64,000 nucleotides of DNA, taken from NCBI GenBank assembly GCA_002973635.1, contig CP027224.1:3358501-3422500 (forward strand), read 5' to 3'. This stretch comes from Lysinibacillus sp. B2A1. GTDB taxonomy: Bacteria > Bacillota > Bacilli > Bacillales_A > Planococcaceae. A program made the translations under genes and the position numbers. This document shows, in pieces, positions 3,059 to 25,163 of the stretch; positions within the stretch are counted from its first letter, which is position 1; each line of letters starts with the position of its first letter. Under the pieces are notes generated by a model. The model was given only the letters and a program-made list of their open reading frames with translations. It ran no database searches and was not told the origin of the DNA.

Positions 3059-3078
3059 GAATATAATATGGTCGAAAC

Positions 3079-3285
3079 TGAACAGGTGAAGAGAAAACCG
3101 CTCCAGTAGCCCAGGAAATTGCTCAGAAAAGAGAAAACTTGCTCGGGTAGCCCAAGAACCTGCTCAGGTAAGGGAAAAACCTGCTCGAGTAGCCAAGGAA
3201 ATTGCTCAGGAAAAGGGAAACCTGCTCGGGTGACTAAGGAAATTGCTCAGGTAACCGAGAAGACTGCGTAGGAACCAGTTGAAGT
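3079..3285 (+). repeat. Degenerate 21-bp tandem array, about 10 units (family A, copy 1)
   Basis: Units begin at about 3079, 3099, 3120, 3140, 3161, 3182, 3203, 3223, 3244 and 3265, giving spacings of 20 or 21 bp. The core is YGCTCRGGTAgCc followed by a purine-rich tail. Units alternate between a CGGGTAGCC-like and a CAGGTAAGG-like form, so there is also a 42-bp higher-order period. Read from GCT, the 21-bp units encode A-R-V-A-x-E-x alternating with A-Q-V-x-E-K-x, but the 20-bp units break the frame. It fills the gap between the Lrp gene and the ECF sigma operon. The same unit recurs at 11927-12115. Confidence 0.9.
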
Positions 3286-5215: not shown

Positions 5216-5235
5216 TATTGTTTGGAGTGATTTTT

Positions 5236-6375
5236 ATGGAGGTATTTATTAAGAATTGTGCAGGCTTAGATGTGCATTCTGAGACAATTGTTGCTTGCGT
5301 TTTAAAAGGGAGACACGAAAACGAAGTATATCAAGAAATAGAAACTTTCCCTACGCTCACGAAAGATTTGTTTCGTCTATTGAAATGGTTAGAAAGCCAT
5401 GAAGTTACACATATTGCGATGGAGAGTACGGGTGTGTATTGGAAACCTGTATTTAATATTTTGGAGGACTTTTTTGATATTACACTTGCGAATGCCCAAC
5501 GAATCAAAAACGTTCCTGGCAGAAAAACAGACGTTTCAGATGCAGAATGGATTGCGAAGTTATTACGTCATGGCTTGATTGAAAAGAGTTTTGTTCCACC
5601 CGTGGAGATTCGAGAACTCAGAGATTTAACAAGACTTCGGAAAAAGTGGATTGGCCATTTAACTTCTGAAAAGAATCGCATTCAAAAAGTATTAGAAAGT
5701 TCAAATGTCAAACTAAGTACTGTGATTTCAGATGTATTTGGCGTATCCGGGCGTAAATTACTAAATCGATTAATTGAACAAGGTTATGTAGATGAAGCCG
5801 ATGTCAAAAAGAATATTCATGGAAGGTTAGCCCCTAAAAAACAATTGATTACCGATTCTTTATTTGGAACACTCAATGAACATCAAATATTTCTTATTCG
5901 CCAATCTTGGCGACACATTGAATATTTGGAGTCATTGGTTTTAGAAATTGAAGAACGGATTAATCAACTATTACAAAATTATCATGAAGAACTTCAATTA
6001 TTAATGACAATTCCAGGTATAAAAAAAGATACTGCCGCAGTTATCATTGCAGAAATTGGTGTAAACATGAATCAGTTTCCCACATCACAACACCTTGCTT
6101 CATGGGCAGGCGTATCTCCTGGTAATCATGAGAGTGCAGGAAAAAGAAAAAGTACGCGTTCTATTAAGGGAAATCCACACATTAAATCGGCCATGTGTGA
6201 GGCAGCTTGGGCAGTTTCAAGAAGTCGAAATCGTTGGTTAGCCAACAAATATTGGTCACTCGCAGCACGAAGAGGCAAGAAAAAAGCACTCGTTGCGATT
6301 TCGCATCGAATGCTTCGAATTATTTACTCCATGCTACTGAACAAGGAGCCATATAAAGAACCACAATTGGTTTAG
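5236..6375 (+). CDS. IS110 family transposase/recombinase (DEDD)
   Basis: 379 residues from ATG 5236 (TTGGAGTG ribosome site at 5221-5228). The N-terminal RuvC-like DEDD domain shows G-L-D-V-H-S (first Asp, near residue 10), M-E-S-T-G-V-Y-W (Glu, near 67), and R-K-T-D-V-S-D-A-E-W (Asp pair, near 101-104). The C-terminal transposase_20 domain shows I-P-G-I-K-x-D-T-A-A (near 263) and the serine motif A-G-V-S-P-G-N-H-E-S-A-G-K. These proteins work with an RNA encoded in the element to choose donor and target. The gene is intact, so the element may be active. Assignment to IS110 rather than IS1111 rests on the long 5' non-coding end. Confidence 0.93.
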   Translation: MEVFIKNCAGLDVHSETIVACVLKGRHENEVYQEIETFPTLTKDLFRLLKWLESHEVTHIAMESTGVYWKPVFNILEDFFDITLANAQRIKNVPGRKTDVSDAEWIAKLLRHGLIEKSFVPPVEIRELRDLTRLRKKWIGHLTSEKNRIQKVLESSNVKLSTVISDVFGVSGRKLLNRLIEQGYVDEADVKKNIHGRLAPKKQLITDSLFGTLNEHQIFLIRQSWRHIEYLESLVLEIEERINQLLQNYHEELQLLMTIPGIKKDTAAVIIAEIGVNMNQFPTSQHLASWAGVSPGNHESAGKRKSTRSIKGNPHIKSAMCEAAWAVSRSRNRWLANKYWSLAARRGKKKALVAISHRMLRIIYSMLLNKEPYKEPQLV

Positions 6376-8487: not shown

Positions 8488-8519
8488 GAATGACAATAAA
8501 AGCATACAAATTCGTTGAT

Positions 8520-8763
8520 GAGAAAGAGTAGTGTTTCATTTTGTTCTACAGAGAGCCGACATTTGTGGTGAAAGTCGGTGTGCAAGTGTTACATGAAAAT
8601 CCTCTCTGAGAAGATTAGCCGAATATAGTAGGTTAATCCGGGTGTCTACCGTTAAAAAGAACACGTATGATTGTACGTTGCTAAGTGCTATTGAATGATG
8701 TGTCAATAGAATTAGGGTGGTATTCGCGGTTAACCCCGTCCCTTACTTGGGACGGGGTTTTTT
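8520..8763 (+). promoter_or_regulatory. T-box riboswitch (isoleucine) controlling ileS
   Basis: The T-box sequence AGGGTGGTATTCGCGG (8714-8729) is followed by a terminator hairpin (ACCCCGTCCC / GGGACGGGGT) and a T-run ending near 8763. Stem I pairs CAGAGAG (about 8549) with CTCTCTG (about 8604), and includes the AGCCGAC / GTCGG element. The triplet ATC just before CTCTCTG is the likely specifier codon, which reads isoleucine and agrees with the downstream gene. Uncharged tRNA-Ile would favour the antiterminator and switch ileS on. Confidence 0.88.
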
Positions 8764-8804
8764 GTATGCCTTTTATACAAATGGATTGTATAGGAGGAAA
8801 TCAC

Positions 8805-11800
8805 ATGCAAGTGAAAAAGAAAATAGAAACAACTGTAGAAAGAGAATTACGAATTCGCACATTATGGGAGCAAGAAGGATCGTTCCAGGCAACTGTTGCA
8901 AATCGTTCTGGCCATAAGCCTTTTGTATTTTACGAAGGACCACCAACAGCGAATGGATTACCCCATGTGGGTCACGCATTTGGTAGAACGATTAAAGATG
9001 TCGTTGCTCGCTATAAAACCATGCAAGGCTATTTCGTGGAACGTAAAGCGGGATGGGATACACATGGTTTACCTGTAGAATTAGGGGTAGAAAAAAAGCT
9101 AGGTATCTCTGGGAAACACGAAATCGAGAAATATGGTGTTGAACAATTTATCAAGGAATGTAAAAGAAGTGTCTTTACCTATGAAAAAAAATGGCGCTCC
9201 TTTACAGAACAACTAGGCTATTGGATTGATATGGATGATCCCTATTTAACACTTAGTAATGAGTATATCGAATCCGTATGGCATATTTTAAGCCATGTGC
9301 ACAAGGAAAAGCTTTTATATAAAGGGCATCGTGTGTCACCATATTGCCCTAGCTGTCAAACATCATTAAGCTCTCACGAAGTGGCACAAGGCTATAAGGA
9401 TGTTAAGGATTTATCTGTAACAGCGATGTTTAAGCTTAAGGAGAAGGACGAATATTTTCTTGGCTGGACAACAACGCCATGGACTTTGCCTGCTAATGTT
9501 GCGTTGGCAATGAACCCAGAGCTTACGTATGTGCGTGTGAAGCAAGGCGAAAAAGTGTATATTCTAGCAAAAACACTTATCAACAAAGTTTTTACTGAAC
9601 CTGTGGAAGTGTTAAGTGAGCATTATGGTCGTGAATTTGAAGGCATATCCTACACTCCACCTTTTTCATACGTTACAGTTGAGAAAGGGCATATTGTTGT
9701 ACTAGCAGATTATGTGACAGAGCATAGTGGAACCGGCATCGTGCATATTGCACCTGCCTATGGAGAGGACGACTATAAAGCAGTTCAGCAAAATGGTCTG
9801 TCATTTGTCAACGTTGTGGATGGAAAAGGTTGTTATACAGAAGAGGTGCCAGAGCTAGTCGGTCAATTTGTCAAAGAATGTGATGTCGACATTATTAAAA
9901 TGCTTGCTAAAAAGGAGCTTTTATTTGATAAGGAAAAGTATGAGCATAGCTATCCTCATTGCTGGCGCTGTGATTCACCATTACTTTATTATGCAACAGA
10001 TAGCTGGTTTATCAAAATGTCAGCCTTAAAAGAAAAGCTTTTAGAAAATAATGAGCAGGTCACATGGTATCCAGAGCATATTAAACATGGCAGATTCGGA
10101 AATTTCTTAGAAAACTTAGTGGACTGGAATATTAGCCGTAATCGCTATTGGGGCACACCTCTTAATGTATGGATTTGTCAGGATTGTGGTCATGAAGAAG
10201 CACCAAATAGTATTCCTGCTTTAAAGAAATTAGCGAAGGGTACTTTACAGGATGTCGAGCTTCATAAGCCATATATCGACGAGATTATTTGTAGTTGTCC
10301 AAAATGTAAAGGTGAGATGGAACGTACACCAGAAGTAATTGATGTATGGTTTGATAGTGGTTCCATGCCATTTGCGCAGCAACATTATCCTTTTGGAGAC
10401 CTTGCTACTTTTAACAATCAATTTCCTGCTGATGTGGTCATCGAAGGCATTGACCAAACACGAGGCTTTTTCTATAGTTTATTAGCGGTTTCGACTTTAT
10501 TTACAGGAAAGGCACCATATAAAAAAGTACTTTCCTTAGGGCATGTTCTAGATGAACACGGACAGAAAATGTCGAAAAGTAAAGGAAATGCATTAGAGCC
10601 AGTTGAATTAATTGAACAATATGGAGCGGATGCTTTGCGATGGTCATTTTTAGTTGACAGTTCACCCTGGAATCCGAAACGTTTTTCAAAGAAAATTGTT
10701 ATGGACGCGAAATCAAAGCTTGTCGATACATTGGATAATACATTTAAATTTTATCAGTTGTACGCAGAGATCGATGGCTTTGAGTACAATGCAAATAATA
10801 CTGGCACACGTACAAATTTAGATCATTGGATATTGTCTCGTTTACATCATACAATTCAGCTTGTGACAAAATATATGGACGATTTTCAATTTACACAGGC
10901 AACACGAGAAATCGGAAGGCTTGTGGAAGAGCTAAGTAATTGGTATATCCGACGCTCACGTGCAAGATTTTGGGCCAATGGGCTGTCAGAGGACAAACGG
11001 GGAGCATTTAGTACACTATATGAGTTACTAACAACAATTTGTCAATTGTTAGCACCATTCACACCATTTATTGCGGAAGATTTGTATCGACAATTATATG
11101 GGGAAAGCGTGCATTTACAAGACTACCCAAAATATAATGAAGCACTTGTTAATGCGAGCCTCGAAAAAGAAATGCAATCTATTTTAACAATCGTAGAATT
11201 AGGGCGTAGCGTTCGTAATAGTCAAGGGATCAAGGTCAAGCAGCCATTAAGCGAAATCATTGTCTCTGTTGATGGAGTATTAACAGATTTTCAACCGTAT
11301 AGCGAGCTTGTGAAAGACGAATTAAATATAAAAGAATGTTTATGGACAAATGATTTTTCAGCATACGAAACGGTTCATTATAAACTGAACTTTAAAACAG
11401 CAGGGGCCATATTTGGAGCAAAAGTGAATAAAGTAAAAAATTACGTTATGAATTTAAATGATCAAGAAAAACGTGAATTACAGCAAACAGATGAGGTAAC
11501 ATTTACGATTGAAGGGGAACAGCTAACCTTGTTAAAGGAACATGTTTTAATGGAATCGATGGTAAAGGATCAATATATTATAGCCGAAGATGCCTCATGT
11601 CGAATCCTTATAAATGTTCACCTTACAGCAAGCTTACTAGAGGAAGGGCAAATAAGAGAATTAATTCGCACAATCCAAGATACACGTAAAAAATGGCAAC
11701 TACCAGTAGAGCAGTATGTTTCAATTTCAATAGCTGGAAATACTAAAGCAACGTCTATTATCCAGCAGCACGAAGCGTTATTAAAAGCAAATGTGTTGTT

Positions 11801-11897
11801 ACATGATATTGATTATGTGAGTGATGGTCATAGTGAACGCTATATTGAAACAGATATGTTTAATGAAAAGATCACCATTTATTTTAACAATCTTTAA
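8805..11897 (+). CDS. ileS: Isoleucyl-tRNA synthetase, type 2 (IleS2)
   Basis: 1030 residues from ATG 8805, which has TAGGAGGAAA upstream; frames starting at 8685 lie inside the T-box leader. The class I signature P-H-V-G-H is near residue 53-57, and K-M-S-K-S-K-G-N near 585-592. A large editing (CP1) domain lies between them, with [14 protein letters not shown] near 223. Metal-type cysteine pairs occur (C-P-S-C, C-W-R-C, C-Q-D-C, C-P-K-C). The length and the long C-terminal domain resemble eukaryotic-type IleS2 rather than the roughly 920-residue IleS1. IleS2 enzymes are known to resist mupirocin. Here the HxGH motif is canonical. Whether an ileS1 also exists cannot be seen in this window. 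Confidence 0.93.
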
Positions 11898-11926: not shown

Positions 11927-12134
11927 CGCTCAGGTTGCTAGGAAAAGTGCTCTGATAACTCCGAAATCTGCTCAGGTAGCTAGGAGAAATGCTCAGGTAA
12001 GCTCAGAAACTGCTCAGGTCGTAAGAAAAAGTGCTCGGGTAACCTCAGAATCCGCTCAGGTCTTGAGAAAATATGCTCGGGTAACCCAAAAAAACGCTCA
12101 GGTAACCAAAATAGGAAATATCCTGAGCGTTTTT
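11927..12134 (+). repeat. Exact-period 21-bp tandem array, 9 units plus one inverted half-unit (family A, copy 2)
   Basis: Units start at 11927, 11948, 11969, 11990, 12011, 12032, 12053, 12074 and 12095, all exactly 21 bp apart. The consensus is YGCTCRGGTAaCyn followed by a variable GAAAn tail. In the frame that directly follows the ileS stop codon, there is no further stop until TAA at about 12151. This reads as repeated heptapeptides such as A-Q-V-A-R-K-S, A-Q-V-V-R-K-S and A-R-V-T-Q-K-N. No start codon or ribosome site of its own is seen before the repeats. The last unit pairs with CCTGAGCG at 12122-12129 to make a terminator. Confidence 0.93.
12088..12134. terminator. Terminator built from the last 21-bp repeat unit, between ileS and lysE-like gene
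   Basis: AAAAACGCTCAGG (12090-12102) pairs perfectly with CCTGAGCGTTTTT (12122-12134), a 13-bp stem with poly-A and poly-T flanks. It can therefore stop transcription from both converging genes. Confidence 0.8.
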
Positions 12135-12143
12135 ATGCCAAAA

Positions 12144-12746
12144 TTACAATAAACCATTCAGCAGATATAAAGCTGTAGCCCAGATAAAGATAGCAGAACA
12201 TTTATTAAAAATACTCATTATTTTCCCTGAGCTATCGATTTTTTTGAAAAAGGCTCCAGCAATGGTAAGACCAAAAAACCATATCCAAGAAATCAATACA
12301 CATGCAGCAGTAAACAATATTTGCTCCGTGTCACTATATTTTAAAGCACTTGTCCCAATTACACCAATTGTATCTAAAATGGCATGTGGATTTAAAAGTG
12401 AGACAGAGAGCGCAAATAAAATTTGTTTTTTCCTAGGAAGTGCTTCGCTATTATCAGCTGTGGTTGGGGTGGAGCGCCATATTGTATAGCCCATATAAAG
12501 TAAGAAAAGGATACCAACCGTCATTAAGGCAACTCGAAGCCACGCAAATTGCAATACGATAATAGACAAACCGAATACTGCAAGCAGAATCAGAAGCGTA
12601 TCACAAATTGCGGCTGTGATGCTCGCAGGAAAGGCTCGAACTAGATGTGGCTGTGTTGCACCCTGTGAAAAGACAAAGACATTTTGTACGCCTAATGGCA
12701 AAATAAGTCCAAATGCTAAAATCATTCCATGAATAAATGCTTCCAA
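12144..12746 (-). CDS. LysE/ArgO family amino-acid exporter
   Basis: 200 residues with five to six membrane segments. The N-terminal G-M-I-L-A-F-G-L-I-L-P-L-G-V-Q-N-V-F-V-F is the LysE/RhtB-type first helix with the conserved P-x-G-x-x-x signature. S-L-L-N-P-H-A-I-L-D-T near residue 113 is the second family motif. The start is TTG at 12746 after AGGAGGG. Members export basic amino acids or homoserine-type substrates. It is divergent from a MocR regulator at 12855, a common pairing in which the regulator controls the exporter, so the exporter's substrate probably relates to the amino acid or amine that binds the PLP domain. Confidence 0.88.
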   Translation of the reverse strand: MEAFIHGMILAFGLILPLGVQNVFVFSQGATQPHLVRAFPASITAAICDTLLILLAVFGLSIIVLQFAWLRVALMTVGILFLLYMGYTIWRSTPTTADNSEALPRKKQILFALSVSLLNPHAILDTIGVIGTSALKYSDTEQILFTAACVLISWIWFFGLTIAGAFFKKIDSSGKIMSIFNKCSAIFIWATALYLLNGLL

Positions 12747-25049: not shown

Positions 25050-25163
25050 ATGAAAGTGGTGGATAGAATCAATGAACTGATGGATAGAAAAGCTAAAGAG
25101 ATGGATAGAACTATTAAACTGATGGATAGAATCTCTCCTTCGTTTAGTCTAACGATTTTTTGA
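25050..25163 (+). repeat. 21-bp tandem array, four units (family B), encoding an M-D-R heptad micro-ORF
   Basis: TGGATAGAA recurs at exactly 25060, 25081, 25102 and 25123. The tails vary (TCAATGAACTGA, AAGCTAAAGAGA, CTATTAAACTGA). From ATG 25050 the array reads M-K-V-V-D-R-I-N-E-L-M-D-R-K, then A-K-E-M-D-R-T-I-K-L-M-D-R, and on to TGA at 25163: 37 codons with M-D-R every seven residues. The nearest purine-rich site (CGAGG, 25029-25033) is part of the ddh terminator and too far away, so translation is doubtful. Promoter and function are unknown. Confidence 0.8.

What the first reader, a model, noticed from the sequence alone, without database searches (positions are those of the whole stretch)
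11927..12134. A 21-bp array after ileS reads as nine heptapeptides in the frame of the ileS stop codon
Nine units are spaced exactly 21 bp apart, with no insertion or deletion over 168 bp even though the bases vary. In one frame this gives A-Q/R-V-x-x-K/E-S/N heptads with no stop until about 12151. That frame is the one that continues directly after the ileS stop at 11895-11897. Exact period and an open frame despite base drift suggest selection for a heptad peptide or for two-turn DNA phasing, not a plain slippage repeat. The last unit also forms the terminator stem. No start codon is visible, so translation would need readthrough or a cryptic start.
Basis: partly seen in the sequence, partly recalled or inferred. 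Interest (0 to 1): 0.72.

Follow-up and report, generated by a model that had tools for sequence, protein, structure and literature searches.

The report
Two-turn-spaced DNA repeat arrays after genes
The repeat after this gene is not a hidden peptide but one of some two dozen short-repeat arrays, stepped at two turns of the DNA helix, that stand between genes along the chromosome in some soil bacteria and look like landing strips for a protein not yet identified.

Summary
In detail: nine 21-bp units at 11928-12116 lie in an open frame after ileS, and the last unit is the 5' arm of a strong terminator. The peptide reading fails: 18 of 33 arrays in the sampled own-genome regions break frame, and in-frame stops match expectation in two of three genomes. 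The array belongs to a dispersed family (core GCTCRGGT, A-rich stretch, 13-bp spacer): a second copy lies at 3074-3254, and 21 genome sites have three exact cores. The paired core occurs in 12 of 32 genus genomes, 0 of 29 sampled outside, and in Pontibacillus marinus. Neighbouring units share the core, but their spacers differ as much as spacers of different sites. Sites are inherited vertically, mostly lie 3' of leading-strand genes, and carry the core in the leading direction (47 of 48 three-core sites, three genomes). Folding is not selected. An IS3-family element sits in arrays in 10 of 11 resolved copies. Best reading: selected, helically phased DNA sites for an unidentified protein, acting as a boundary at gene ends (that role is inference). 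Neutral minisatellite is the main rival. Six literature searches found no description.

The parts
11928..12116 (+). Array of nine 21-bp units, core GCTCRGGT (second unit degenerate), spacers variable, in the 3' untranslated region of ileS
   Evidence: Sequence read directly; TRF periods 21/42/84
12095..12134 (+). Intrinsic terminator; 5' arm is the last array unit, 3' arm CCTGAGCG 12122-12129, T-run 12130-12134
   Evidence: Fold -20.2 kcal/mol, z -8.1; a terminator with the stem GCTCAGG/CCTGAGC and no array in 9 of 23 genus genomes with this ileS
3074..3254 (+). Second array of the same family, after an AsnC/Lrp-type regulator gene and before a sigma-70-family gene; contains an off-period step
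   Evidence: TRF, sequence, spacing histogram, Pfam of neighbours
8805..11897 (+). ileS, isoleucyl-tRNA synthetase, co-directional gene 30 bp upstream of the array
   Evidence: ORF, Pfam tRNA-synt_1 and Anticodon_1; the start at 8805 is my choice of ATG inside the listed ORF 8685-11897
12144..12746 (-). LysE-type transporter gene, convergent neighbour
   Evidence: ORF, Pfam PF01810

Best explanation
A dispersed family of DNA-level site arrays. SHOWN: the same asymmetric motif (A-rich stretch, one free base, a pyrimidine, GCTCRGGT, then often A) recurs mostly every 21 bp at some 20 to 30 sites in array-rich genomes, between genes, mostly just 3' of leading-strand genes. The core stays constant while neighbouring spacers are as different as spacers of different sites, and sites are inherited vertically. 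Fold energy is not selected. INFERRED: an unidentified sequence-specific protein binds each core, copies on the same face of the helix because 21 bp is two turns, giving a polar, bent nucleoprotein stretch. It most likely acts as a boundary at gene ends, by roadblocking read-through or constraining supercoils. Where the protein is lost, all arrays of the genome would decay together. The confidence below is for DNA-level, selected, phased binding sites; for the boundary role alone I would give about 0.25.
For: Core vs spacer: adjacent units mismatch 0.12-0.19 in the core and 0.66-0.70 in spacer columns 9-15 in G000, G001 and G006; units drawn from different sites mismatch 0.68-0.71 in those columns, so neighbours are hardly closer than strangers; of interior phase positions, 36 of 350, 12 of 197 and 2 of 123 fail the core at <=1 mismatch. 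Spacer columns 10-13 carry 0.08-0.26 bits. Phase: 21 bp in 109/137, 128/140 and 134/138 steps in own, other Lysinibacillus and P. marinus loci. Vertical inheritance: over 15 sites matched by eye (ileS not among them), G000 spacers are closer to the orthologous G001 site in 15, rank 1 in 14; 3 of 300 locus pairs within G000 share a spacer at <=1 mismatch. No RNA/ssDNA structure: mean z 0.02 (RNA) and 0.10 (DNA) over 55 arrays. Placement: left neighbour leading in 28 of 31 array gaps vs 212 of 329 array-free gaps (Fisher p 0.0025); divergent gaps 2 of 31 vs 78 of 329, p 0.024. Polarity 20 of 21, 16 of 16 and 11 of 11 three-core sites in G000, G001, G006 (direction from GC skew). Bend model: 84 deg/126 bp, 68 spacer-shuffled, 52 random genome, 36 and 50 with spacing 23 and 26, n=21, no significance test. 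Presence: 17-566 pairs at <=2 mismatches in 12 genomes, 0-8 in the other 20; reversed control 0-6. Same core in P. marinus.
Against: No binding protein was found. Arrays were found by their core, so sites with decayed cores are missed and core conservation is overstated to some degree. Polarity is largely explained by gene orientation: 540 of 726 ORFs are leading, and 27 of about 28 sites has P 0.003 under that null. Lagging-oriented arrays exist: two in G000, one in G001, several P. marinus loci and 2 of 16 other Lysinibacillus loci by local skew (L126, L134), a few in G014. About 10% of steps at own loci are 20 bp. Units two apart are alike (spacer mismatch 0.18-0.26), so duplication does shape the arrays. 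Twenty of 32 genus genomes do without them. The bend values rest on wedge parameters recalled from memory.
Confidence: 0.57

Rival explanations
1. Neutral or selfish minisatellite: an old dispersed repeat, kept in intergenic DNA that tolerates it, with the core preserved by the copying process rather than by a function.
For: 42-bp homogenisation within arrays, copy number differs between orthologous sites, 20 of 32 genus genomes lack it, a decayed single unit in G028 at one site and fragments at ileS.
Against: Copying would carry spacers with cores, yet neighbouring spacers are about as far apart as those of different sites while cores are not; sites rarely share spacers (3 of 300 pairs); the same core and period occur in another genus.
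Confidence: 0.25
2. Chromosome-polarity marks read by a motor or fork barrier (KOPS/SRS-like or Ter-like): arrays would tell DNA translocases or forks which way the terminus lies.
For: 47 of 48 three-core sites in three genomes are leading-oriented; none of them lies within 0.46 Mb of a contig end, the origin side by GC skew in G000 and G006; if a fifth of the chromosome is barred, 0 of 28 sites has P about 0.001-0.002.
Against: Orientation follows gene orientation; lagging arrays exist; G014 has array pairs at 5.19 of 5.29 Mb; the core is unlike the KOPS and SRS words as I recall them; only some species have arrays.
Confidence: 0.1
3. RNA-level 3' UTR element, grown from the ascending arm of the ileS terminator and acting on termination or mRNA ends.
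For: In 9 of 23 genus genomes ileS ends in a compact terminator with the stem GCTCAGG/CCTGAGC; by position 14 of the 21 such pairs in the genus lie just after ileS; in G000, at ileS and at one further site, the array lies between stop codon and terminator.
Against: At least 11 of 33 arrays lie beyond a terminator; no excess folding; the pair is hardly commoner in the genus than its reversed control, 21 against 18; the second site's terminator has another stem.
Confidence: 0.05
4. Translated heptad peptide reached by readthrough of the ileS stop.
For: Open frame of 84 codons in phase with ileS; G006 arrays have slightly fewer stops than expected, P 0.015.
Against: Frame breaks, stops, no third-position excess between neighbours; no conserved phase at the orthologous site.
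Confidence: 0.01
5. REP-like element spread by a Y1 (RAYT-type) transposase, or an imprint of a type IIL restriction enzyme that cuts about 21 bp away.
For: Dispersed, intergenic, IS-targeted like REP; cut distances of type IIL enzymes, as I recall them, fit the period.
Against: No hairpin selection; Y1 matches do not follow arrays: in 8 of 12 array genomes and 13 of 20 array-less ones; MmeI-type methylase in 1 of 12 array genomes, weakly, and 3 of 20 others.
Confidence: 0.02

Closest known systems
REP/BIME extragenic repeats and their target-specific IS (IS1397, ISKpn1, ISPpu9)
   Same: Dispersed, intergenic, and used as a specific target by IS elements, some of the IS3 family (passages of PMC1525189 seen)
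   Different: Units are head-to-tail direct repeats with 21-bp phase; folding not selected; no matching Y1 transposase pattern
Plasmid iterons (Rep-binding repeats of about 20-22 bp; recalled)
   Same: Direct repeats two helical turns apart with conserved core and free spacer
   Different: Tens of chromosomal sites; the window array finds no match in 72,556 plasmid records at E 1e-5
rDNA Sal-box / TTF-I or Reb1 terminators (recalled)
   Same: Head-to-tail protein boxes just 3' of genes, polar
   Different: Bacterial, at many different genes; no protein known; roadblock untested
KOPS/SRS (FtsK/SpoIIIE) and Ter/Tus sites (recalled)
   Same: Asymmetric word oriented by replichore, not found near the contig ends in three genomes
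   Different: Clustered phased arrays, different word, lagging copies exist, 20 of 32 genus genomes lack them

Membership tests
REP/BIME | Palindromic unit able to form a hairpin | tested here: not met
   Mean fold z 0.02 RNA, 0.10 DNA over 55 arrays against spacer shuffles
REP/BIME | Associated Y1 (RAYT) transposase in bearing genomes | tested here: not met
   No match in 4 of 12 array genomes (G003, G014, G022, G024); in G001 and G006 only short matches, 3 of 4 with stops; matches in 13 of 20 array-less genomes
REP/BIME | Dispersed in intergenic regions, target of specific IS | tested here: met
   10 of 11 resolved IS copies (of 13 matches) lie inside arrays
Iteron array | Direct repeats at two-turn spacing with conserved core | tested here: met
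Iteron array | Cognate Rep protein and replication origin beside the array | tested here: inconclusive
   Neighbours of the two window arrays are ileS, LysE, AsnC-type and sigma-70-type genes; neighbours of other arrays were not searched against families
KOPS/SRS-like polarity mark | Consistent orientation toward the terminus | tested here: inconclusive
   47 of 48 three-core sites leading, but gene orientation explains much and lagging arrays exist
KOPS/SRS-like polarity mark | Recognised by a translocase gamma domain | not tested
   No search made
Coding heptad repeat | Frame maintained, stops avoided, third-position bias | tested here: not met
   only G006 shows a mild stop deficit (P 0.015)
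Protein-roadblock terminator (Sal-box type) | Bound protein stops RNA polymerase | not testable with these tools
   Needs binding and transcript-end data

The most novel reading that the evidence does not exclude
Some Bacillales carry an undescribed chromosome-wide boundary system: a dedicated DNA-binding protein loads on two-turn-phased arrays placed at the ends of leading-strand genes away from the origin and forms polar filaments that separate transcription units or orient chromosome processes; the system is gained and lost as a whole.
Probability: 0.28. Interest if true: 0.85.

Novelty: new variant of a known kind. Interest (0 to 1): 0.62.

Why it matters
The best-known dispersed bacterial repeats, REP sequences, are palindromes. 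A family of non-palindromic arrays held near two helical turns, with a fixed core and free spacers, is a direct lead to an unknown DNA-binding protein with tens of chromosomal sites. Related species with and without arrays make the question testable by comparing gene content, and an insertion element that aims at the arrays marks them independently.

Tried and rejected
Coding heptads: rejected. A first stop-codon null (35 stops against 50.3) shuffled columns across the two alternating unit types and suggested selection; with the same-parity null the effect vanished in G000 and G001, but G006 kept P 0.015. Hairpins in RNA or ssDNA: rejected. Type IIL restriction imprint: MmeI-type methylase in 4 of 32 genomes, of which only G006 has arrays. 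RAYT: rejected. Terminator-arm origin of the whole family: GCTCAGG...CCTGAGC pairs number 21 in the 32 genus genomes against 18 for the reversed control; by position 14 lie just after ileS, and a second site has another stem, so at most a local story; which state is ancestral at ileS is open (tree). Strict A/G alternation of position 5: 15 of 24 sites in G000, 39 of 66 over the six Lysinibacillus groups, so not beyond what dimer duplication would give. Virus carriage: 22 stretches in viral contigs, read, look by eye like simple tandem repeats. Phage and plasmid records: no match of the window array at E 1e-5. A TRF hit near the origin is, by eye, a tRNA pair. Exclusion from the origin side: held in three genomes, not in G014. 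Literature: six searches of open-licence PubMed Central papers listed no description of this repeat; only listings and abstract starts were seen, plus passages of PMC1525189.

Full report
CHECK. The nine units at 11928-12116, their 21-bp step, the open frame to 12150-12152 and the terminator made with the last unit are all in the sequence. A second array of the same unit lies at 3074-3254.

EXTENT. Two exact cores 13 bases apart occur 168 times in the 5.51-Mb genome and 0 times in the reversed control. Three exact cores occur 100 times, at 21 sites by my grouping. The pair is found in 12 of 61 genomes: 12 of 32 of the genus and 0 of 29 outside it. The triple is found in 1 of 398 genomes sampled from the class, the window's own; four others of the genus in that sample have none. 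With two mismatches allowed, the 12 genomes hold 17 to 566 pairs and the other 20 hold 0 to 8; the reversed control gives 0 to 6.

ANATOMY. Consensus in own genome (25 sites, 246 distinct units): GCTC R GGT a nnnn rr aa AA n Y. Adjacent units: core mismatch 0.191, 0.150 and 0.121 in G000, G001 and G006; spacer columns 9-15 0.703, 0.656 and 0.703. Units two apart: 0.258, 0.252 and 0.175 in the spacer. Units taken from different sites of one genome mismatch 0.703, 0.708 and 0.678 in the same columns. So these arrays are built of 42-bp pairs whose two spacers are about as unlike as those of different sites while both cores are kept. The P. marinus arrays are plain 21-bp repeats (lag-1 spacer mismatch 0.20). 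Cores are 21 bp apart in most steps, with 20 bp the commonest single-unit exception at own loci. A dinucleotide wedge model predicts more bending than shuffled or re-spaced versions, without a significance test. Fold energies show no excess structure.

PLACEMENT. In the sampled own-genome regions 31 gaps between ORFs hold arrays: 19 tandem leading, 9 convergent, 2 divergent, 1 tandem lagging, against 174, 38, 78 and 39 of 329 array-free gaps of at least 100 bp (simple ORF calls of 100 aa or more). At least 11 of 33 arrays begin, by eye, within 90 bp after a terminator; at ileS and at a dehydrogenase site they begin after the stop codon and before the terminator. Three-core sites carry the core in the leading direction in 20 of 21 (G000), 16 of 16 (G001) and 11 of 11 (G006). 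GC skew changes sign between 3.42 and 3.50 Mb in G000, between 2.70 and 2.79 Mb in G001 and between 2.8 and 2.89 Mb in G006, on the samples taken. Against a polarity code: two G000 arrays and others are lagging, often with pyrimidine-rich spacers, and orientation largely follows genes.

HISTORY. Many of the same sites hold arrays in G000, G001 and G006, matched by flanking ORF lengths. G000 spacers are nearer to the orthologous G001 site than to other sites in 15 of 15 comparisons, rank 1 in 14; within G000 3 of 300 locus pairs share a spacer. At ileS, 10 of 23 genomes have an array of at least 3 cores, 9 have a compact terminator with stem GCTCAGG, 3 have remnants and 1 has neither. At the second site 9 of 29 genomes have at least 2 cores (one of them about 1 kb further on) and one, G028, has a single unit. 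On the ileS tree the array label needs 3 changes, against 7.9 for shuffled labels.

THE INSERTION ELEMENT. A 1385-bp IS3-family element (HTH_Tnp_1 and rve domains) has 13 matches, all in 4 array-bearing genomes of the 32: G000 7, G001 3, G006 2, G015 1, the last only 74% identical. Eleven could be read at both ends; 10 lie inside arrays and one (L350) does not. In 8 of the 10 a 3-4-bp duplication stands one base or so before GCTC; the copies in L341 and L339 do not fit that. REP sequences are targets of IS elements in a similar manner, IS1397 and ISKpn1 being IS3-family examples (PMC1525189, passages seen).

MECHANISM. A sequence-specific factor that needs the core, tolerates any spacer and reads one face of the helix explains the constant core, the phase, the vertical sites and the genome-wide presence or lack; the boundary role at gene ends is inferred from placement alone. 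A neutral repeat explains the duplications but not why neighbouring spacers are at random distance and cores are not. Because arrays were found by their core, some of the core's constancy is ascertainment; of interior phase positions 36 of 350, 12 of 197 and 2 of 123 fail the core at one mismatch.

NOVELTY. No paper describing this repeat was listed in searches, which cover open-licence PubMed Central papers only. It is filed as a new variant of dispersed extragenic repeats; it fails REP membership on palindrome and transposase.

Noticed in passing
window 3074-3254: Second array of the same family, between an AsnC/Lrp-type regulator and a sigma-70-family gene; by flanking ORF lengths its site in G006 (L250) also holds an array.
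   Followed up: yes
L338:1504-2888; also L342, L345, L347-L350: IS3-family element that sits inside the arrays in 10 of 11 resolved copies, mostly at the same phase of the unit.
   Followed up: yes
L203 near 2657348, L211 near 4910725 and 4919003, L176 near 529287, L177 near 581952 (genome coordinates): Another dispersed tandem repeat of 34-36 bp, units with variants of TGTGCGAAAGCGAAGCGACAGC.
   Followed up: no
window 25053-25133: 21-bp tandem repeat AAACTGATGGATAGAATCAAT, 3.9 copies, without the core.
   Followed up: no
window 8506-8746: T-box leader upstream of ileS; 23 of 32 genus genomes have this ileS at E<=1e-60.
   Followed up: partly
window 5218-6375: IS110-family transposase gene between the two arrays.
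   Followed up: no
G014, G006, G024, G025: Units with core GATCRGGT alternate with GCTCRGGT in several species.
   Followed up: no
L070, L078, L080, L107, L122: Treponema MAG Iy174_bin62 has near-identical 21-bp repeats GCTCAGGTTGTCGACAACGCG on several contigs; probably unrelated.
   Followed up: no
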